Below, piece after piece: positions 52,383 through 63,400 of a stretch of 64,000 nucleotides of DNA (its first letter is position 1; every line of letters starts with the position of its first letter). The stretch is from positions 806,001 through 870,000 of the forward strand of contig JAGTXO010000005.1 in the NCBI GenBank assembly GCA_019448385.1, read 5' to 3'. The translations under genes were made by a program, and so were the position numbers. Origin of the DNA: Diacronema lutheri (taxonomy: Eukaryota; Haptophyta; Pavlovophyceae; Pavlovales; Pavlovaceae). Below the pieces are notes generated by a model. The model was given only the letters and a program-made list of their open reading frames with translations, was not told where the DNA came from and did no database searches.

Positions 52383-55063
52383 CTAACTAATGACAATGCT
52401 CGGGGGGGGGGGGGGGGGGGGGGGGTTTCCGATCTCGGGGTAGGTGCGTCGCATGTAGCACATGAAGCGCTTGTTCATGCGTAGGATGACAAGCCTTTCG
52501 AGCTCCTCGTGGCCAAGGAGCGAGTTGCCGTCCGTCAGCACGGTGTTGGCGCACGACAGCATGCGCTCGCAGAAGCTCTCAGCCATGAGCGAGCCGACCT
52601 GGCCCCACGAGCGGCTCGCCATCAGCGGAATGTAGCCAAAGGTCGGATGCTTGTCGATGGTGCCGTTGTTGAGCAGCTTGCCGCGGTAGAATCTGCCGAG
52701 CGGCAGGCCGACGAGATCGTCGACCACATCGGGGCGCTGCGGAATCTCGCAGCCGGGAAACTCGACGGCGAGGTTGATTTGCGTGCGCAGCCAGGCATCG
52801 GCCTGCGTCGTCACCCGCTCGCGCAGCGCGTGCTCGAGCGCGGCGTGGTTGGTCTGCTCGTCGGACAGCTGCGCCTGCGCGAGCGGCGTCCAACTACTCT
52901 CGAGCGCATCTGGCGCGCCGCGCGTTGGCGTGAGCGGCACGCTCGCGGCTGCTGGGAAGGCAGCAGCTGCTGGAAGGGGCGAAGCAGCGGCAGCGGCCGC
53001 TTCCGCGTTAAACCTGTCGACCTGCTTCTCGAACTTGATCATCTCATTGATGAGGAGCGCGCGCGCAGCTTTTCGCTCGCTGACGGAGAAATGACTGCAG
53101 CCCTTGGTGCGCACGTCCAGCACAGTGGCGAGCTGCTCGCGCGGCGTGATGGTGATCCGCGCGTCGGAGACTGGCTCCTCGATGTCCTTGCCGCAAAACC
53201 GGCGCTGAAATTCGACGAGTGCGCGCTTCAGGCACTCCCTGCCAAGCGGCGTCATGTCCGCGACGTCGCACATCTCGCGCGCGTGCTCAACCGAAGAACC
53301 GGCAGACACCTTGTCCCTCTTGATGATCGCAACTGCGCGACGGGCGACAAAAGCGCACGCCAGGTGGTCAAGCCAGCACGCAAACGCCCGGGGCGCAATC
53401 AGCGCGCGCGCACGCTGGTTGCTTTTCAGCGCTGCCTCGAGCTTGAGAAGCACGAGGGGGACGTACGGGCCCACACACATCTTCTCCTTCTGCGCGAGCG
53501 TGGTCAGGTGCTTGGTCTGGTTGAGGACGGCTTCGAACTCGCGAGCAGTCTGCCACTGTACGTCAGTCAGCTGCGGGCACGTGTCCTTGACCTGGTCAAA
53601 CTGGCTCATGTGCGTCGCGAGCGGGCGCTCCATCCGCACGACTGAGTTGAGGAGCATGAGGCGTGAGGCGACTCGCGTCGTGTTGAGGTCGACCGCCAGC
53701 TTGATTTCGGGCGCCTAAAGGGATAGTAAGGGGCAATTCGTCGCAAATCAATTCACGCCGCACACGTCGCGTCGCGCGCGCGGCCTTTGCTGGGAGCGCG
53801 CCGCACCTTCAGTACGCGCGCCATGTCGTGGAGGACCGAGAGGCGGCTGCTGTAGCTGAACCACACGGCGAGCATGTGAATCCGGTTGATGAGCACCTGC
53901 CCCTCCTTAAAGGGATTGACGACTCTGCCCTTCTTGGAGCGCACGAGGTCGCCGATGGCCGACTTGCCAACCTTCTCGCCGTCGTGCATCAGGCACACGT
54001 TGCTGTCGAGGACGTCGAGCTCGTTGCCAACTCCTGCAGCTGCTCGGTCGGACGTGACGACGCCAATGAGCTCGCTGAGCTCGATTCCGGCGAGCGCCTC
54101 GATGCGCGACTGCAGCGTGTCCGCGACGGTCGCGTTGGTGTTGTCCCTGTCGTGCCGGACGAACACGATCGCGACGACCATGTTGCTGTCGAAGTCGGGC
54201 GGGATGAACTGCAAGCCGGCCGCCTGATACTTGGCGTGGTTGGCGAGAGTGCCGCCGTCGTGGATGAGCTGCATGAACAAATTGCCCTTAGCCTCCGCGT
54301 GCATCTTCTTAACAAGGAAGATGAGGTACGCTTCGAAGCACGCGAACTCGGCGTTCACGTAGTCGGTGAGCTGCTTGGACGTGAGCAAGGCAGGTTTGTG
54401 CTCGTCGGTACTGAACAGCGAGAGCATCGTCTTATACTCCTCGGCGTCGAACGTGCGCTTCGAGATGAGCTGCGGCGTGTATATGTAGAATCGCGCCTGC
54501 CCCGCGAGCTGCTTGCGCGCGCGGTCCGCCGCAAAGTGCGCGTCAAGCTTTCCCTGGGAGCGCTTGCCGTGCGCGGTGAGGCTGGAGACAGCCGCGCCGT
54601 CCGCACGTGCGCCCGCGCTCCCGAGCGCCTCCATGTCCGACGTGAGCCTCGCTCTCTTGGCGTCAAAGCGCGCTGCGCCCGCCGCGCCCCCGTCCGTCGT
54701 GGCCGAGTGGAACTCACGCAGGTGCTGACCGGCGGCCGAGGTGAAGAGGCGATTGTTCTTCTTGTCAATCGAGCAACGCAAGATTGTGTTGCACCTCTTG
54801 TCGAGCCCGACGACCACGTTGCAAATGCAATTGCCCACTTTGTGCCACGACTTTGGCGCATCGTCGGCGAGCAGGTTGACGTCGTCCCACACCTTGGATT
54901 TGACGCCCGGCGGCGGCGCATGGACGTAGAGCGATGGGACGGGTACACCATTGCGCTCGGGCAGCGGCGCATCCGCCGCTGCCGCCGGCGCTGTCGCCGC
55001 CGCCGCCGTCGCCGCCGCCGCCGCTGCCGGCGCTGCGGCCCGCCCGATGAGGTGAGCGCGCAT
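52383..55063 (-). CDS. hAT transposase with BED-type zinc finger
   Basis: Two exons, 55063-53807 and 53714-52383, 863 codons with a GT-AG intron (92 bases). A BED-like finger 'CNVVVGLDKRCNTILRC' with 'HLREFH' lies at about residues 95-135 after an Ala-rich leader. 'FMQLIHDGGTLANHA' and 'HDGEKVGKSAIGDLV' are in the RNase-H-like region; the junction reads 'LHDMARVLK' plus 'APEIKLAVDLNTTRVASRL', like the hAT 'TRW.S' motif with Trp changed. The C-terminal dimerisation region is clear: 'IPLMASRSWGQVGSLMAES' and 'ANTVLTDGNSLLGHEELERL'. The frame ends by reading through a G24 tract as poly-Pro. An odd, perhaps inactive member because the usual catalytic wording is weak. Confidence 0.75.
52402..52425. 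repeat. G homopolymer (24) at the 3' end of the hAT transposase frame
   Basis: Twenty-four consecutive G on the plus strand; on the minus strand they would be read as eight prolines just before the stop of the transposase. Confidence 0.9.
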
Positions 55064-55252
55064 CGTCGCTTTCGTCGCGACTTCGTCGCGACCGTCGCGC
55101 TGCAAGTGACGAAATCGTCGTCGTCGCCACCGTCACTGTCTCACGCTGTGACGGGCAGTCGCGACCGTCACTGGACGCGAGCAGCGAAGATCGTCGCGAA
55201 GATTTTAGTGACTGGAGAACGCTGAAAATTTTTGGAGACGACGGTCTTCATC

Positions 55253-58108
55253 ATGGGAGAAAGAAAGCGCACGCGGGACAGGAGGGCTGCGGACTTCCGC
55301 ATCAAGGCGGGTACCTGCGAGCGGCGCCGCATGACGCCCGAGGAGGTGGCCGCTCGCTTTTGCGAGATTGACCGCCGGACGATGACGCTGTTTGGCACAT
55401 GCACATCCGCGCAGCTCGAGCTCGACGAGCTGCATGCTTTTCCTAGCACGCCGATCGTTGGGAGCGCGCCCCTGCCCGAGCCGACGGTGACGCTGGTCGC
55501 CTACGCGGCATGGCGCCGTCGCCACGAGGTCGTCCGCCAGCTGCTGCGCGGCGGCGCCGACCCGACCGTGCGGCACCCGGGAGGGAGCGTGCTCGGCACG
55601 GGCACGGCGGACGAGGCGAACACGCGCGCGCTGCTCGCGCAGCTCTCGCGCGTGTCAACCGCCGCGGTGGTCTTCGTGGTCGTCGAGATGGTGCGGCTGC
55701 GCTTCGTCACAGCGCGCGAGGCCACGCTGCGCGCCGGGCCGCTCCCGCCGTGCGCCGTGTGCGGCGGGTGCGCGTACGCGCTCGTGCTCGATCCATGCGG
55801 TTGCGTCTGCTGCGAACCGTGCGTCTGGCGGCGGATGAACGCTGAGATGCTGCGCGAGGGCGAGATGAGCTGCCCAGCGTGCTTCGTACACCTGCGCGCG
55901 CACGCGCTCAGCACGTGCGCCGCCACCCACGCCGCCAACGGCTCGTTGCCGCCGGCGGACGACTGGCTGTGCGACGCATGCGGCTACGAGAACCGCTTCA
56001 GGCGCGCAAACTGCCGCAACTGCGGCAACTGCCGCTCGTGCGGCGGCGTGGCGCTCGGCCGAGCGCTCACGGGGCCTGTCGCTCCACCGTGCATCGCGCC
56101 GCGCTCCGCGCTGCTCGCGCTCACGGCCGTCGCGGCGTGCGCGCCCGGCGCGGCGCGCCTCGTCGCTGTGGTGTGCGCACCTTCGGCGCGCGCGCGCTCT
56201 CGGCCGCTGCCCGCGCTGCTCGCGCTCGGCGGCACGCTTGCGCTCGCGGGCATCGTGCGCGCGCTTGCGCCCAGTTCGCGCCGCACGTCCGCTGCGCCCG
56301 TCGCGAGGCCGGCGCGGCCGGCGCCAGGTGGCGTAGGTGCCGCGCACTCGGCGTCCGAAGGGGCGCGGGACGAGGCGGAGACAGACCTTGTCCCGGCGGT
56401 GGGCGAGGTGGCGGTCAGCCTGACTGTGACGAGCGCGCGCAGGACGGGCGAGGCCATCGGCCTGATCATCGGCGACTTGTGCGCGCCGCTCGAGCTCGCG
56501 TCGCTCGAGCCGAGTGCGCGCGCCGCCGTCTGCGCATCGCTCGTCGAGCAGGGCGCGCGCGTCGCCGTGGAGGGCCTCCTGACGCTCGTCGAAGTGTCCG
56601 TCGGCACTGCGACCGAGGATGTGCCCGTATGCACGGTTGGCGAGCTCGACGGCGTAGAGGGCGCGCCTGGCCTGGCCATCGATCCGCTGACCGCAGCCGA
56701 CGAGCAGCAGGGCGAGCAGCAGGGCGAACAGCAGGGCGAGCAGCATCTCGGCGAGAGCGGCGCGCAGCTCGGCGGGGCGAGTGCGCGCGTGCAGCACGGC
56801 GTGCGCGTGATGCGGGTGTTGCGCAAGCTCGAGGCGGGCTCGCAGCTGCGCGCCGTCGGCGTGCTGAGCGTGTCCGATGGCCAGCTCGAGGTCGCCGCGC
56901 GCGTCGTGTTCCGGTACCGCGCGCGCAAGCCGCCGCCCGTCTGGCAAGGCCGGGCGCCCGGCGCCGACGGCGAGTCGCGCGCGCGGCGCCGAGGACGCTT
57001 CGAGCCAAAGCCGCCGAACGTCGCCGCCGCCGAGCGCGCCAGGCGGCTCGACGCCAGTGGCCAGCGCGACGAGCTGCGTGCGGCCGCGGCTGCCGGCGAC
57101 GCTGTGAGGATTAGCGCGCTCGCCGCCGCCGGCGTGGACGTGTGCCGGCTGCGTGACGCCTACGGCGCGCCGGCGATTGTCGTGGCCGCGCTGCACGACC
57201 GAGCCGAGCTGGTCGAGCGGCTGCTCTGCGCGTGGCGCGCGGATCCGAACGAGGCGAGCTCGTGCGGCGCCACCGCGGCAACCGTCGCCGCCGCGCGCAA
57301 CCATGGCGATGTCCTCGACGTGCTGCGCGCGCACGGCGCTGACCTCGAGCGCGCCGGCAGCGCGGGCCTTTCAGCAACGCAGCTCGTGACATATGGTGCG
57401 CCTTGGAACAAATCGCCGCCCGCCACCGAGCGCGAGGACGCTGTTGTGGTGGAGGCGCCGGTGGGCTGCTCGCCCGCCAGTGCGGAGGGCACGCCCGTCT
57501 TGACTGTGCCGATCCCGCTGAGCGGCGCGCCGCCGACCCTGCACCGGCTCGTGCCGCGCGAGAGTTCGCACGCCGGCGCGGGCAGCTGCGTGATCGACGG
57601 CGGCTTCGAGCCCGCCCTGCTCGAACAGCTCGACGCCGCGTTTCGCGCGGTGCCGCTCGAGCCGCGCTGCAAGGAGTCAGCGCACAACGACCGTGCCTAC
57701 CTGCCGGACGCGGAGGGCTGGGTCACGGCCGCGCTGCGCCGCGCCGTCGCCGCGTTTGGCGACGCCGCGCCGTGCCGCCAGGGCGCCATGGTGCAGATGC
57801 GCTTCTTGCTGTACGCCGAGGCGGGAGGCGGGCTGCCGCCGCACATTGACCTCGTACGCACCGACGAGAGCGGCCAGCGCTCGAGCCACACGTTCATCCT
57901 CTACTTGACCGGCTGCGAGGAGGGCGGTGAGACGCAGCTGCTTTCGCACGTCGGCGTAGCGCGCGAATCGCGCCCGCCGCGCGTGCTCGCGTCCGTCACG
58001 CCGGTGCGAGGCAGGCTTCTCCTCTTCCCGCACATGTGCCCGCACCTCGCGCGCCCGGTGGTCGCCGTCGGCCTGCCAAAGTTGCTGCTGCGCGGCGAAA
58101 TGTACTGA
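55253..58108 (+). CDS. Multidomain protein: ankyrin, RING-like finger, RanBP2 finger, ankyrin, C-terminal 2OG-Fe(II) oxygenase
   Basis: One frame of 951 residues from ATG 55253. Order: ankyrin-like 'RHEVVRQLLRGGADPTVR' (about 83-105); cysteine-rich RING-like block with 'CAVCGG', 'CGCVCCEPC', 'CPAC' (about 167-210); RanBP2-type finger 'WLCDACGYENRFRRANCRNC' (238-262); hydrophobic helix 'LPALLALGGTLALAGIVRAL' (317-336); an unassigned beta-rich region with a 'GEQQ' repeat; ankyrin repeats (603-702) with 'LRAAAAAGDAVRISALAAAG'; and a prolyl-4-hydroxylase-like domain (763-951) with 'PPHIDLVR' (His863, Asp865), 'GGETQLLSH', 'FPHMCPHLARPV' (distal His 927 or 931) and a basic residue near the end. 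It may be a membrane-bound, ubiquitin-linked hydroxylase. Its ATG is 20 bases from the hAT end. Confidence 0.78.
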   Translation: MGERKRTRDRRAADFRIKAGTCERRRMTPEEVAARFCEIDRRTMTLFGTCTSAQLELDELHAFPSTPIVGSAPLPEPTVTLVAYAAWRRRHEVVRQLLRGGADPTVRHPGGSVLGTGTADEANTRALLAQLSRVSTAAVVFVVVEMVRLRFVTAREATLRAGPLPPCAVCGGCAYALVLDPCGCVCCEPCVWRRMNAEMLREGEMSCPACFVHLRAHALSTCAATHAANGSLPPADDWLCDACGYENRFRRANCRNCGNCRSCGGVALGRALTGPVAPPCIAPRSALLALTAVAACAPGAARLVAVVCAPSARARSRPLPALLALGGTLALAGIVRALAPSSRRTSAAPVARPARPAPGGVGAAHSASEGARDEAETDLVPAVGEVAVSLTVTSARRTGEAIGLIIGDLCAPLELASLEPSARAAVCASLVEQGARVAVEGLLTLVEVSVGTATEDVPVCTVGELDGVEGAPGLAIDPLTAADEQQGEQQGEQQGEQHLGESGAQLGGASARVQHGVRVMRVLRKLEAGSQLRAVGVLSVSDGQLEVAARVVFRYRARKPPPVWQGRAPGADGESRARRRGRFEPKPPNVAAAERARRLDASGQRDELRAAAAAGDAVRISALAAAGVDVCRLRDAYGAPAIVVAALHDRAELVERLLCAWRADPNEASSCGATAATVAAARNHGDVLDVLRAHGADLERAGSAGLSATQLVTYGAPWNKSPPATEREDAVVVEAPVGCSPASAEGTPVLTVPIPLSGAPPTLHRLVPRESSHAGAGSCVIDGGFEPALLEQLDAAFRAVPLEPRCKESAHNDRAYLPDAEGWVTAALRRAVAAFGDAAPCRQGAMVQMRFLLYAEAGGGLPPHIDLVRTDESGQRSSHTFILYLTGCEEGGETQLLSHVGVARESRPPRVLASVTPVRGRLLLFPHMCPHLARPVVAVGLPKLLLRGEMY

Positions 58109-58147
58109 GCACAAAATTGAAAATTCTTGTCCTGCCATCGTGTGATC

Positions 58148-58997
58148 ATGAGGCCGATGCGGACGGCGATCCAGACTTGCCGTGCGCCAGCGCACGTCGT
58201 GCCGCGGCTGCGCGAGCGCGCCGGATGTGGCGCGGTCGTCATGGCCGCAGAAACGAGCCGGCGCAGCACACTCGTCTCGTTGGCTTTGGCGTCCGCCAGT
58301 GTGCTCGGCCCGCCGGGTGCAGAGCGCGCGTCGGCGTTTGGCCTGTCGTCGCTGCGGCAGCTTGACCGCTCGATTGAGCAAATCTTTCAAAAGAACACGC
58401 CGAGCGTCGTCTTCATCTCGACGTACACGCAGGCGCGATCGACATTTGACCTCAATTCCATGATCGAGGTGCCGCAAGGCACGGGCAGCGGCATCGTGTG
58501 GGACGCGGACGGCCACGTTGTCACAAACTACCACGTCATCCGTGCCGCACAGGAGGCAAAGGTGACCGTCACCAGGGAGGGCGGCATGCGGCAAGTGTAC
58601 GACGCGCGGCTCGTTGGTGCAAACCCCGACAAGGACGTCGCGGTCCTGCAGCTCCTTCCTCTCCGCGGCGAGTCTGCCGTGCGCACGACTCCTGTGCGTG
58701 TGGGCAGCTCCAACAGCTTGCACGTCGGCCAGGTCGTCTTCGCCATCGGTGCGCGTCGCGGTCGGGAGTGGCGCGGCGATGCGCGGGAAGCGATTTGCCT
58801 TGGCATGGCGTTGCGCGCACCTGCCACCGCGCGCGTGCGCCCGCTCACGGCCCGGGCCTGCGTGCCTATGTGCGGTGCGGCACTTGTCGCGCGACGCAGG
58901 CAACCCGTTTGGCCTTGACCACACGCTGACGATGGGCGTGGTTTCGGGCCTCGGGCGCGAGATGCTCTCGCCCTCGCGTCGGCCGATCACCAACGTG

Positions 58998-59029
<32 letters not shown>

Positions 59030-59346
59030 CTCTGGCGGCGTGCTCCTTGACATTGAGGGCAGGCTCATCGGAATGGCGCGCGCGCACGCGCCCGGGCAGC
59101 ACGCCCGTCCGCGCCGCCCCTCGCGCGCGCGCGCGCGCGCGGGCGCGCGTGCCGCTCTCGGCGTGCTTGCTTCCACGTGGCCCTGCCGCGTGCACGTGAC
59201 CCGGCGTGACGCGCCGCCTGACTGTGACCCGGCGTGACGCGCCGCCTGACTGTGACCCGGCGTGACGCGCCGCCTGACTGTGACCCGGCGTGACGCGCCG
59301 CCTGACTGTGATCGACGCGCGTGCCATGCGCGCGCGGGAATGCGAC

Positions 59347-59381
<35 letters not shown>

Positions 59382-59986
59382 CTCCGTCCCACCCACCCCA
59401 CCGCTGAATCCTGTGCGCGCAGAACACCGCCATCTACTCCACGTCGGGCACGTCCGCCGGCATCGGCTTCGCCATCCCCGCCGACACGCTCGGCGTGCAG
59501 GTGCGCTCCATCCTGAGCAGAGGCTTGGCGACGCGCGCCGTGCTCGGCATCGCCGTGCTCGCCGGCGCGCAGCTGCGCGCGCTGGGCATCGAGGGTGGCG
59601 TGCTCGTGCTCACCGTGCCGCCAAACTCGGAGGCGGCGCTTGGCGGGTTGCGCGGCAGCGTGCGCGATGCGTCCGGCGCGGTCGACATTGGCGACGTGAT
59701 CGTCGAGTGCGACGGCGCAGCGATCAACTCAGAGACCGACTTGTTCAGGGCGCTCGACTCGCACCAGCCAGGCGACGTCGTTAAGGTCGTCGTGCTGCGC
59801 GGTCTGCAAAACATTTTGCCGGAGTCGGCCACAGGCCTGGCCGCGCCGAGGCCGAGTGGCCCTGCCGACGCCAAGCCGCCCGCGATTGAGCGCAAGGAGC
59901 TGCGCGTCAAGCTCTCGGCGGTGGACATCCCCGTTCCGCTTGCGGGCACGGTCGGCAACCCCGCCGCCAGCCTCGGGCTCCCGTGA
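58148..59986 (+). CDS. Plastid (probably thylakoid-lumen) HtrA/Deg1-type serine protease
   Basis: Three exons, 58148-58748, 58900-59075 and 59423-59986, 447 codons; intron 1 GT-AG, intron 2 GC-AG. Catalytic triad: His in '[11 protein letters not shown]', Asp in '[11 protein letters not shown]', Ser in '[11 protein letters not shown]'. The junctions restore '[20 protein letters not shown]' and '[20 protein letters not shown]', the standard Deg1 wording. A PDZ domain follows ('[18 protein letters not shown]', '[10 protein letters not shown]'). The N-terminus has a plastid-type leader, then '[16 protein letters not shown]' and 'ASAFGLSSL', a twin-arginine thylakoid signal with cleavage before Phe. 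Deg1 removes damaged photosystem proteins in the lumen. Confidence 0.92.
59196..59307. repeat. 28-base tandem repeat, four copies, inside an intron
   Basis: The unit GTGACCCGGCGTGACGCGCC plus GCCTGACT occurs at 59196, 59224, 59252 and 59280 without variation, with a partial fifth copy after 59307. It is followed by a C31 run (59348-59378). All of it lies in the GC-AG intron of the HtrA gene. Confidence 0.92.
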
Positions 59987-59996
59987 TTTGAAGGCT

Positions 59997-60073
59997 AGCG
60001 GATGACTTCCGCGAGCTCACAAGTAGGGCGGGTGTGCGGCGGGGCGAGCGGATGACACCGCGAGTTCACAGGT
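59997..60073. repeat. Direct repeat between convergent HtrA and PpnP genes
   Basis: AGCGGATGAC followed by a CCGCGAG.TCACA-like block occurs at about 59997-60022 and again at 60049-60073. The second copy includes the PpnP stop codon, so the stop region was duplicated into the intergenic gap. Confidence 0.65.
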
Positions 60074-60365
60074 ACTCGCAGAGATACGCGCACGGAGCGG
60101 CAGCCTTGACGAAGAAGGCGCTCTTCCCCTTCACCTCGAAGTTGCTGCCCGCCGCGTAGAGCTCCCACGCGTCCGAGCCTTCCATGCGCACGTAGAGCTG
60201 GCCCGAGATGATCGCCATCCGCTCGGGCGAGTCGGTGCCGAAGCGGTACTCGCCTGGGACGATCACGCCGACGGTGGCCTTGCGGCCGTTGCGGTCGAAG
60301 CCGAGCGACTGGACTGCCCCTTCGAAGTACGACGAGTGACTGATTGCGGCCATCGGGGCGGCCAT
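60066..60365 (-). CDS. ppnP: Pyrimidine/purine nucleoside phosphorylase PpnP (DUF1255)
   Basis: 99 residues from ATG 60365 (a second ATG at 60353 is possible). The whole length follows bacterial PpnP: 'SYFEGAVQSLGFDRNGRKAT', 'VGVIVPGEYRFGTD', 'ERMAIISGQLYVR', 'WELYAAGSNFEVKGKSAFFV' and C-terminal 'CAYLCEYL'. PpnP is a small cupin that phosphorolyses many nucleosides to base and ribose-1-phosphate. It is a typical bacterial gene, so a bacterial origin is likely, although GC content now matches the host. The frame stays open far upstream of 60365, but that is the shadow of the opposite gene. Confidence 0.9.
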   Translation of the reverse strand: MAAPMAAISHSSYFEGAVQSLGFDRNGRKATVGVIVPGEYRFGTDSPERMAIISGQLYVRMEGSDAWELYAAGSNFEVKGKSAFFVKAAAPCAYLCEYL

Positions 60366-60411
60366 TGTGGGGAGCGGTGCACCTGCAACCGCGGCCATCG
60401 CTAACCGCGCC

Positions 60412-63400
60412 ATGGAGCGGGCGCGCCTCGAGACGCGGCTCGAGGCGTCGCGGCTCTTCTTCCACCCGGCAATCGGCTCGGCCGAGGCGGAGAGCACGTC
60501 GGCGGCGCCGCCGAATGGCGTCGCGTGGACCGCGCATCTCGACCGCCTCCTCGTGAATGCGGCGCGGCGCGCTGCGTTCGACTGGGAGGCGACGGCGTCG
60601 CACGTGCGCATGCATGGCGGCGTTGCCGCGTGCACGGTCGACGAGTGCCGGCTGCGCTGGGCGTCGCTCGATTTGCAGGCATGCGTCCAGGTCACCGAGC
60701 AGCACGCCCTCTTCGGCGCCGCGCACCTCGACGTTGGCGCGGCCAACGGCGAGGCGTCAGGCCCGTCGGACTTTTCAATCTTCACGCGCGACCTCGGCTC
60801 AGAGGTCCGCGCGATCCACGAGGAGGTGCGCATGCTGCTCCCGTCAATAGGCACCGACACGGATGAGGATGATTCAGAGGGCTCGGAGGGCGTCATCGTT
60901 CGTCCAATCCTACGCGGCACGCCCACGCACGGCACGGCAAGCCTGGCGAGCATCCCAGCGCTCGCGACGGCTGCTTGCGCGAGCACCGCCGCGTGCATGC
61001 CGCAGCCGCTGCGTGACGCACCCGCGTGCGTGAGCGCGATGGCGCCTGCCCGGCTGGGATGTGCAGCCGCGCCATCTGCCGCCCCGTCCGCGGGCCCGCC
61101 TGCCAACGAGCCAGAGACGCCCGCAGAAGCTGCCATGCTGCTCGGCACGTCACGTGCTCCAGCCGCCGCGCCCGACCCGGACGTGAGTGATTGCAGCGAG
61201 CTAAGCGAGGAGGCGAGCGCCGAGCAGCTGGCCGACGCGCACGTTTTCGTGGCATCGCCTTTGCCCGAACCCGCGCCAAAATCGCAGCCCATTGCAGCGC
61301 CCGCCAGCTCATCGGCGGCAGGACAACCGCCCGCGAGGCCGCGGAGCGCCGCAGCAGCGGACGGCGCCGCGCGCCAACGCGGGCGCGGCGTCGGATACGG
61401 ACGAGGGCATGGCGGTGGGCGCGGGCACGGTGCAGCGCGCGGCAGTCGTGCCATGCATTCGGCTTGCGAGGACGGAAACGCAGCGGGCGATGACAGTGAC
61501 GACGACAACAACGATGACGACAGCGGTTCGGAGGACGTGTGGCTCACGACGCGCCGCCAGCTGCGCGGATGCGCGCAGAGCGGAGCGCGCGCCGGCTCGG
61601 CCGCATCGATTGTCCGGCCGACGAGCGCACCGGCTCGTCGAGCAATGGCGCCGCGCCTTGCCGCGCGCGCCGCAGCCGAGGACGCAGGCGAGGAGTGCGC
61701 GCCGCCCGCCGTGCGCGTCGCCTGGGCCGCGCCAGCGCGCCCTCCACTCGGCGGCGACGGCGACAAGACCCGCGTTGCTGCGGGCGACGCCGCGCTCGGG
61801 GCTGCTGCTCGCACTCCGAGCGCTTCGACGCGCACGTCGCCAGCCGCAGCCACGAGCGCGCAGCTCCTCGCGGACATGCGCGCCGCCGACAGCAGCCGCG
61901 CGCACGCGGATGCTGAACGGGCGCGCGCGCAGCGCGAGGCGGCCGACGCGGCGGCGCGCGCGCGTGCGCAGGCGGAGGCGAGCGCAGCTGAGCGCGCGGC
62001 GGAGGCTGCGCGCAAGCAGGCCGACACCGAAAACGCCGCGCGCGCGCGCGCCGAGGAGCGCGCCGTACTCGCCGCGCGCGCGCGCGCTGCCGACGACGCG
62101 GCGGCCGCCGCGCGCGCGGCAGCAGCCGCGGCCGACGCGGAGGCGGCGCGCGTCGCCGCGGAGGCGGACGCGCGCGCGCGCACGGCCGAGGCGGCGCACG
62201 ATGCGCTCGTCGCCGCTGCGCGTGGCGGCGGCGCGCACGCACCGTTGGCCGACGCTGCCGCTCGAGCGCGACACGAGCCGCGGGCGGATGCTGCAGCTGT
62301 GCCGCGCGGACGCCAATTGCGCTCCTCGCTCTTCGACGAGGCCATCTCGCTTGCGCCGCCGCTCGCGGCGGTCGCGCTGCGTGCCGAGGCGGGCGCGGCG
62401 TACACCGTCGTCCTTGTGCTCGACGGTCTCACGCAGGCCCAACTCGGCAGCCTCGTCGCGCGCATCTTTGCGGCCGCGCCGGGTGCTGGCGGCGTGCTGC
62501 CATGCTCCGCCTCCGGCGAAGCGCCGCCGGCGCTGCTTGCCGCCGCGCTGACCGCATGGCCACTCGCGGCGAGTGACACACTCGCCCGCGATGCGACGAC
62601 GGCGCCCGAACCTGCGAGAGCGCGCGCGCTCGCCCTCGGGTTGGCCGAGACGAACGTTGGCGGCGTAGCCTCGTGGTTGGCCGAGACCACGCTGCGCGCG
62701 CTGCTCCCGCTCGACGAAGCGCCGGCGGCGCGCGATGCGCGCGGTGCGCACAGCGTCGGCGAGCGAGCGTTGCTGCTCGAGCGCCCGCTCAGCCAGCTGG
62801 CGGAGGTGCTTGAGCCCGTGGATGGAGCGCTTCCCGTCTTTGCGCACTCGGCCGATTTTCAAGCTGGCGCGTATCTCAGCTCGCGCGGTTTGGCGGAGGG
62901 CGCGAGCGGCGGCGATGGCGATGGCGCGACGCCAGAGCCGCACCACGCCGCGCGCGAGATGACGGTGCTGCTTGCGCCCCTCGATGCGCCCAGCGGCGCG
63001 CCGGCCGGCACAGACGCGCCGTCCGAGAGCGCAGCGCGCTGTTCGGCCCCGCTCGCGGAGCAGCTGCTGCGGCTGGCCGCGCACGCGTGGGAGGCGCGCG
63101 GGCTGTCGCTCGTTGGCGCACGGCTGCTCTTCGCGCCCGCGCTTGCGCCCGAACAAGCGCTCGGCGCGCGCGCCGGCGTCCGCTCGGGCGCGAGCGCGAG
63201 CGCGGGCGGGTTTGCGCCGCTGCTGCCGTGCAACACGGCGCTCAGCTTTGACGCGGTGCCATCAGCGCCGGCGCGCGCGTGGGCTGCGATCGCGCTGCGC
63301 GGGGTGGGCGCGGTTGGGCGCTGGCTCGAGGTCGCTGGCCCGTCCGACGGCGCGCTCGCCGTGCGGACCGACCCACAGTCTCTGCACGCCCTCCTGGCGC

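What the first reader, a model, noticed from the sequence alone, without database searches (positions are those of the whole stretch)
55253..58108. Unusual fusion of ubiquitin-type zinc fingers, ankyrins and a 2OG oxygenase
One uninterrupted frame joins a RING-like finger, a RanBP2 finger, a membrane-like helix, ankyrin repeats and a C-terminal Fe(II) hydroxylase with His-Asp and distal His in place. I know no characterised protein with this order. It could couple substrate hydroxylation to ubiquitination in a single chain, as HIF regulation does with separate proteins.
Basis: partly seen in the sequence, partly recalled or inferred. Interest (0 to 1): 0.75.

Follow-up and report, generated by a model that had tools for sequence, protein, structure and literature searches.

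The report
RING–ankyrin–hydroxylase fusion protein in algae
An alga gene, probably haptophyte, makes one long protein joining a ubiquitin-ligase-like RING finger, parts that look built to hold RNA or single-stranded DNA, ankyrin repeats and an oxygen-dependent hydroxylase; related algal proteins share the layout, so it is real, seemingly undescribed, and testable.

Summary
Window 55253-58108 (+) is one open frame of 951 aa. Pfam finds ankyrins and a C-terminal 2OG-Fe(II) oxygenase above cut-off. It is no chance fusion: ten relatives share the order RING, ankyrins, oxygenase, among them proteins of Prymnesium parvum and Emiliania huxleyi. Corrections: (1) The RING is supported by ligand pattern and conservation, but no RING match seen reaches its Pfam cut-off; the window's fourth ligand is Cys. 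(2) The RanBP2 finger is not of the ubiquitin-binding (NZF) kind: 0 of 10 fingers have the Thr-Phe pair, 10 of 10 have an RNA-contacting Arg. (3) The 'membrane helix' is a hydrophobic stretch in 4 of 11 members. (5) An ankyrin-like block precedes the RING. The oxygenase is PHD/P4H-like, its metal and 2OG residues invariant in 46 of 46 aligned rows. Likeliest role: an O2/2OG-dependent hydroxylase that recruits clients by ankyrins and may ubiquitinate them. Ligase activity, substrate and RNA binding are inferred.

The parts
55253..58108 (+). Whole open frame, 951 aa plus stop (P0001)
   Evidence: aligned with 8 relatives (P0008 lacks about 75 N-terminal residues, P0007 lacks the middle domain)
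55334..55693 (+). N-terminal helical, ankyrin-like block (residues 28-147), with the invariant YAAWR motif at 84-88
55751..55882 (+). RING-like finger (residues 167-210), ligands C167 C170 C182 C184 C187 C190 C207 C210
   Evidence: motif; pLDDT 90-95 and strand-strand-helix order; pieces of relatives match RING models at E down to 3.9e-5, all under the Pfam cut-off
55964..56023 (+). RanBP2-type zinc finger (residues 238-257), with R250-R251, no Thr-Phe pair
   Evidence: exact signature in 10 of 11 full-length members; Pfam Zn_ribbon_RanBP E 0.0066 on the piece, under cut-off; pLDDT 61-72
56108..56266 (+). Hydrophobic stretch (residues 286-338), possible membrane hairpin, in a subgroup only
   Evidence: Kyte-Doolittle peaks in P0001-P0004 only, 4 of 11; P0002 shows one peak, the others two; disordered in the model
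56396..56932 (+). Predicted OB-fold domain (residues 382-560), interrupted by a disordered insert at about 450-520
56701..56745 (+). 12-base tandem repeat (Glu-Gln-Gln-Gly) in the disordered insert of the OB domain
57050..57397 (+). Second ankyrin block (residues 600-715)
57530..58105 (+). PHD/P4H-like 2OG-Fe(II) oxygenase domain (residues 760-951)
   Evidence: PF13640 E 1.9e-8; Foldseek PHD2 8rut E 2.6e-5, algal P4H 2jig 2.9e-5
57842..57850 (+). H864-x-D866, predicted iron ligands
   Evidence: 46 of 46 rows of A2
58043..58045 (+). H931, predicted distal iron ligand
   Evidence: 46 of 46 rows
58079..58081 (+). K943, predicted 2OG carboxylate-binding residue, 12 residues after H931
   Evidence: 46 of 46 rows Lys; spacing 12 in 11 of 11 full-length members, 9-10 in the ten ankyrin-oxygenase proteins of the tree

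Best explanation
This is one real gene for one multidomain protein, a member of a family for which I found no description and whose named members are haptophytes: ankyrin-like block, RING-like finger, RanBP2 finger, OB fold (in most members), ankyrin repeats, PHD/P4H-like oxygenase. Shown: one frame, conserved order, intact metal and 2OG residues, RING ligand pattern. Inferred: the C-terminal domain hydroxylates a residue, probably proline, in a protein client held by the adjacent ankyrin block. The RING recruits a ubiquitin-loaded E2, so that O2/2OG-dependent hydroxylation and ubiquitination happen on one scaffold. The RanBP2 finger and the OB fold place it on RNA, ssDNA or an RNA-protein particle. 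In one subgroup the hydrophobic stretch may tie it to a membrane.
For: Colinear relatives with RING Cys and oxygenase residues among the invariant columns. PHD/P4H folds at the top of the PDB list and best sequence-profile match to algal P4H 2jig, E 1.4e-5 (that alignment stops before the distal His). H864, D866, H931, K943 invariant in 46 of 46 rows. RING ligand pattern in 10 of 11, and in 11 of 11 by a relaxed pattern, the fifth ligand being displaced in P0097. Short ankyrin-oxygenase proteins without the N-terminal modules exist, and the RING-bearing group is one side of a branch, support 90/91, as expected if the N-terminal modules were added to such a core. Precedent: PHD-type enzymes act on a ubiquitin-ligase subunit, Skp1, in protists (PMC7864055, passages).
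Against: No RING match seen reaches its Pfam cut-off: 5 of 11 RING pieces scanned with scores shown, and nine whole members with best E 0.0074 and no scores shown. The residue after the last RING Cys, often Arg/Lys in active ligases (recalled), is Arg in 3 of 11; the residue at C1+2 is not conserved. The RanBP2 model is not listed for any of 9 whole members at E up to 1. The middle domain is missing from P0007 and P0010, so the OB fold is not essential to the family. OB assignment rests on models of moderate confidence and Foldseek E-values of 0.048 and above. No substrate, E2 or RNA was tested.
Confidence: 0.42

Rival explanations
1. An RNA-protein-particle hydroxylase: the RanBP2 finger and the OB fold dock it on RNA, the oxygenase hydroxylates a translation or RNP protein, and the RING is a structural zinc knuckle or dimer contact, not a ligase.
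For: RNA-contacting second Arg in 10 of 10 fingers and the stacking aromatic in 6 of 10 (criteria from PMC6384913, passages). OB matches to SSBs and tRNA synthetases. Pseudomonas P4H, which hydroxylates EF-Tu, is among the nearest folds (4iw3 and 4j25). RING models under cut-off and weak E2-contact conservation.
Against: RING ligands are among the invariant columns, like the oxygenase residues; Trp192 is kept in 11 of 11 and Cys-Pro-x-Cys in 9 of 11. The window protein lacks the stacking aromatic. P0007 and P0010 lack the middle domain.
Confidence: 0.26
2. A self-regulating ligase: the oxygenase acts on the protein's own ankyrins, or only senses O2/2OG, and so gates the RING in cis, without a shared external client.
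For: Two ankyrin blocks in the same chain. Ankyrin repeats are known substrates of another oxygenase, FIH (recalled).
Against: FIH belongs to a different structural family from the PHDs (PMC7864055, passages), and nothing here points to self-modification.
Confidence: 0.12
3. A secretory-pathway prolyl 4-hydroxylase with extra domains, acting on proline-rich cell-surface proteins.
For: Best PDB sequence-profile match is Chlamydomonas P4H, and the 2OG anchor is Lys. A subgroup has hydrophobic segments.
Against: RING, RanBP2 and ankyrin modules are cytosolic or nuclear kinds (recalled). No strongly hydrophobic 19-residue stretch in the first 60 residues of any of 11 members, best mean 1.0 in the N-terminally short P0008. 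PHD2 ranks with the algal enzyme in the fold search.
Confidence: 0.08
4. Artefact: two neighbouring genes read as one, or a chance open frame in GC-rich DNA.
For: High GC, and long antisense frames over the same DNA.
Against: Relatives from several sources align across the junctions.
Confidence: 0.02

Closest known systems
HIF prolyl hydroxylase PHD2/EGLN1
   Same: Oxygenase fold (8rut Foldseek E 2.6e-5, TMt 0.53); a zinc finger N-terminal to the oxygenase (MYND in PHD2, PMC6235002, passages); link to ubiquitin
   Different: PHD2 has no RING, OB or ankyrins and its ligase, VHL, is a separate protein (recalled); the 2OG anchor is Arg in the PHD-type DdPhyA (Arg276, PMC7864055, passages), Lys here; about 15% identity
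Skp1 prolyl hydroxylase PhyA (Dictyostelium, Toxoplasma)
   Same: Protist PHD-type enzyme acting on the ubiquitin-ligase machinery (PMC7864055, passages); structure 6t8m at rank 40 of the fold matches
   Different: PhyA hydroxylates a subunit of SCF; here a RING-like finger is in the same chain; no Skp1 link was tested
Chlamydomonas prolyl 4-hydroxylase (2jig, 3gze)
   Same: Best PDB sequence-profile match, E 1.4e-5; near the top of the fold list
   Different: Acts on Ser-Pro peptides (PMC6235002, passages); no RING, OB or ankyrin in the matched chains (224-233 residues)
Pseudomonas prolyl hydroxylase PPHD (4iw3, EF-Tu complex; 4j25)
   Same: Nearby fold, 20-22% identity in the aligned part
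   Different: No added domains in the solved chains; bacterial
Ankyrin-oxygenase proteins P0017, P0030, P0035, P0036, P0058
   Same: Ankyrin plus oxygenase core, 42-52% identity over the oxygenase query
   Different: 276-341 aa; no RING or RanBP2 motif in any of the 93 other proteins scanned, 86 of them short relatives and 7 plain ankyrin proteins; His-to-Lys spacing 10 instead of 12. Some may be incomplete at the N-terminus
ZRANB2/FUS-type RNA-binding RanBP2 fingers
   Same: Signature and the second Arg (PMC6384913, passages)
   Different: The window's finger has Arg, not an aromatic, at the stacking position

Membership tests
2OG-Fe(II) oxygenase superfamily (PF13640) | Profile match above curated cut-off | tested here: met
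   35.6 bits vs 27, residues 850-944; listed for 9 of 9 members
2OG-Fe(II) oxygenase superfamily (PF13640) | HxD...H iron triad and basic 2OG anchor | tested here: met
   H864, D866, H931, K943 in 46 of 46 rows
PHD/P4H structural group | Nearest fold and sequence to prolyl hydroxylases | tested here: met
   Foldseek top rows, E 2.6e-5; profile search best hit 2jig
PHD/P4H structural group | Hydroxylates proline in a protein | not testable with these tools
   needs an assay
HIF prolyl hydroxylases (EGLN) | Arg as 2OG anchor | tested here: not met
   Lys in 46 of 46 rows; Arg276 in the PHD-type DdPhyA (PMC7864055), Arg in EGLN itself is recalled. Called PHD/P4H-like, not EGLN
RING finger | Eight Cys/His ligands in RING spacing | tested here: met
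   Pattern in 10 of 11, relaxed pattern in 11 of 11 with the fifth ligand displaced in P0097
RING finger | Pfam RING score above cut-off | tested here: not met
   Window piece 14.4 bits vs 27; best bits among 5 pieces 24.0 vs 27.9; no RING model in the whole window protein at E up to 10. Hence RING-like
RING finger | RING fold in the model | tested here: inconclusive
RING E3 ligase | E2-contact residues and ligase activity | tested here: inconclusive
   Cys-Pro-x-Cys in 9 of 11, Trp192 in 11 of 11, Arg after the last Cys in 3 of 11 (meaning recalled); activity not testable
RanBP2-type zinc finger | W-x-C-x(2,4)-C-x3-N-x6-C-x2-C | tested here: met
   10 of 11 members; signature as in PMC12383448 (passages)
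RanBP2-type zinc finger | Pfam PF00641 score above cut-off | tested here: not met
   Window piece 16.1 bits vs 27, whole protein 7.3, best of two relatives' pieces 17.6; not listed for 9 whole members at E up to 1
NZF ubiquitin-binding finger | Thr-Phe pair after the second Cys | tested here: not met
   0 of 10 fingers
RNA-binding RanBP2 finger | Second Arg of the RNA-contacting pair, and stacking aromatic | tested here: inconclusive
   Second Arg 10 of 10; aromatic 6 of 10, not in the window protein
OB fold | Structural match to OB domains over the whole domain | tested here: met
OB fold | Sequence profile match | tested here: inconclusive
   PF01336 E 0.13 in one window piece, nothing in a longer window piece; 0.047 in P0005, nothing in P0097 and P0002 pieces; PDB profile: AspRS E 0.68 and an SSB E 1.0, the only two hits
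Ankyrin repeats | Profile above cut-off and repeat fold | tested here: met

The most novel reading that the evidence does not exclude
A single-chain, RNA- or ssDNA-tethered, oxygen- and 2OG-gated ubiquitin ligase: the OB fold and the RNA-type finger bring it to a ribosome or other RNP, the ankyrins hold a client there, the PHD-like domain hydroxylates it, and the RING ubiquitinates it. Haptophytes would then have fused hydroxylation and ubiquitination, carried by separate proteins in HIF regulation, into one O2-reading enzyme, with a membrane-anchored branch.
Probability: 0.18. Interest if true: 0.85.

Novelty: new variant of a known kind. Interest (0 to 1): 0.56.

Why it matters
In the cases I know (recalled), 2OG-dependent hydroxylation and ubiquitination are carried by separate proteins: PHD2 and VHL for HIF, PhyA and SCF for Skp1 in some protists. 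A conserved protein carrying both kinds of module, plus folds that usually bind nucleic acid, would let one test in a single chain whether the two modifications are coupled in cis. It would also be a candidate O2 or 2OG sensor in haptophytes, a major group of marine algae. The ten answered paper searches named in the report gave no description of it, within capped lists of open-licence papers.

Tried and rejected
Chance or two-gene artefact: rejected, since relatives align across the junctions. Ubiquitin-binding NZF reading of the RanBP2 finger: rejected on the Thr-Phe test. MULAN/GIDE-like reading of the middle domain: considered from memory; no such Pfam model was listed and the fold search gave OB. 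Membrane helix as a family trait: rejected, 4 of 11. Viral or bacterial origin of the oxygenase: viral contigs gave 2 relatives at 30-33% identity out of 13 stretches, in frames of 277 and 318 aa; genome contigs gave 0 of 27 stretches, scanned with one short peptide pattern, so weak. Viral fold library: mostly giant-virus and phage 2OG enzymes plus some ankyrin proteins, same folds only. Rfam and tRNA scans of the window: nothing. NCBIfam: only ankyrin-region matches far below cut-off. The third protein search, with profile A1, gave P0002 and P0097 plus 7 ankyrin proteins among 7,992 scored candidates. Alignment A5 of the middle piece was visibly wrong and not used. Papers: ten answered full-text searches; aimed at the architecture and listed 0, 2, 10 of 349, 6 and 2 papers; none of the listed titles or abstract beginnings describes it.

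No RING structure appeared among the 50 rows shown in each, and none by title apart from RNF213 at rank 32 (E 0.4, not clearly on the RING); the lists were filled by other domains, so this says nothing either way.
Full report
OBSERVATION. The frame 55253-58108 on the + strand is open from ATG to TGA and encodes 951 aa, P0001. The window is 70% GC (65-77% per 2 kb) and holds other long frames on both strands, so openness alone means little; the longest frame in 30 mononucleotide shuffles was 664 aa. Third-position GC is 0.82-0.94 in every 300-base slice of the frame, even along its length; since the antisense frame is GC-rich too, this is weak evidence. The strand is settled by homology.

RELATIVES. 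A search over the whole length (only the 7,993 candidates sharing most words were scored) returned 9 proteins. Eight (P0002-P0009) align with the window protein at 34-57% identity. Two of these are not complete matches: P0008 lacks about the first 75 residues, and P0007 lacks the middle domain (66 residues between its finger and its ankyrin motif, against 228-465 in the nine others measured; MAFFT had set its finger in the wrong place). The ninth, P0010 (Emiliania huxleyi EMIHUDRAFT_458748, 577 aa), keeps RING and oxygenase, has only half of the finger and also lacks the middle domain. P0006 is Prymnesium parvum AB1Y20_006811, which UniRef names a RanBP2-type protein. P0097 (750 aa, 37 member sequences) came and has the finger, middle domain, ankyrins and oxygenase. 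These two names are the only organism names among the full-length relatives, and both are haptophytes; the window's own genome could not be reached, so its haptophyte placing is an inference. P0006 holds two inserts (residues 361-388 and 666-700) that look like introns left in the gene model (my reading).

OXYGENASE. In the full-length model (46 rows, mean pLDDT 74; oxygenase blocks mostly 94-98, ankyrins 91-98) the top Foldseek rows are PHD2, PIUC, Chlamydomonas P4H and Pseudomonas P4H, at 15-22% identity, with Dictyostelium PhyA at rank 40. H864, D866, H931, K943 and R947 are invariant in 46 of 46 rows. In a motif census, 75 of 97 retrieved proteins carried all three of HxD, FPHxxxH and PKxxxRG as written, many of the rest being fragments or variants. 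DdPhyA has His191, Asp193, His266 and Arg276 (PMC7864055, passages), ten residues from distal His to the 2OG anchor. Of 104 retrieved proteins, 88 show the distal His and the Lys: spacing 10 in 42, 12 in 37, 9 in 9. All 11 RING-bearing proteins have 12; the ten ankyrin-oxygenase proteins used in the tree have 9-10. Spacing 12 thus marks the subfamily, and the other short proteins with spacing 12 are probably pieces of it (inference).

HISTORY. A tree of the ankyrin-oxygenase part (21 rows) puts the RING-bearing proteins on one side of a branch (90/91, not starred; 92% of 200 bootstrap trees). P0007 and P0010, without the middle domain, pair at 97/93. No RING or RanBP2 motif was found in the other 93 proteins (86 short relatives and 7 ankyrin proteins). 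The short relatives came from a search limited by length (111-352 aa found), so longer fusions elsewhere would have been missed and some may be incomplete. The simplest account is that an ankyrin-oxygenase protein gained the N-terminal modules once, and that the middle domain was lost, or never gained, on the P0007/P0010 branch.

MECHANISM. Shown: architecture, conservation, intact catalytic residues, PHD/P4H-like fold by prediction. Inferred: protein (probably prolyl) hydroxylation; client binding by ankyrins; E2 recruitment by the RING; nucleic-acid tethering by finger and OB. The case for ligase activity is mixed: Cys-Pro-x-Cys in 9 of 11 and Trp192 in 11 of 11, but Arg after the last Cys in 3 of 11 and no conserved residue at C1+2 (that these are E2 contacts is recalled). 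The rival in which the RING is structural and the protein an RNP hydroxylase is kept at 0.26.

LITERATURE. Ten answered searches listed no paper on this architecture; two of them matched hundreds or thousands of papers of which 10 were listed. Of the papers cited only passages were seen (PMC6384913, PMC12383448, PMC7864055, PMC6235002). The library holds open-licence papers only.

VERDICT. Its function is open.

Noticed in passing
window 58127-59986 (+): Deg/HtrA-like protease (Trypsin_2 E 5.3e-17 and PDZ_2 E 3.8e-8 in two separate frames), its first frame beginning within 20 bases of the fusion gene's stop; seemingly split by introns. Between the two lie 4.1 perfect copies of a 28-base repeat (59196-59311) and a C run of about 35 (59348-59382).
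   Followed up: partly
window about 60072-60338 (-), end of frame 60066-62690: Pyrimidine/purine nucleoside phosphorylase domain (Ppnp, PF06865, E 4.4e-27), a kind best known from bacteria (recalled).
   Followed up: no
window 52383-55105 (-): Two adjacent frames that look like a broken transposase-type gene (BED-like Cys/His stretch; my reading by eye); no Pfam match at E 0.01.
   Followed up: partly
L001 4533-5366 and L002 4416-5372: 2OG oxygenases on large viral contigs (30-33% identity), each followed by a similar frame (L001 5392-6051, L002 6035-6793) that looks like a nucleotidyltransferase by eye.
   Followed up: no
P0006 (Prymnesium parvum AB1Y20_006811), residues 361-388 and 666-700: Two low-complexity inserts not seen in the members aligned with it, probably introns left in the gene model.
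   Followed up: partly
P0001-P0004 versus P0005-P0009 and P0097: Members with the hydrophobic stretch are the ones whose RanBP2 finger lacks the stacking aromatic; possible split into membrane-bound and soluble, RNA-binding forms.
   Followed up: partly
P0007 and P0010: Both lack the middle (OB) domain and have low-complexity inserts around the RING; they pair in the tree at 97/93.
   Followed up: partly
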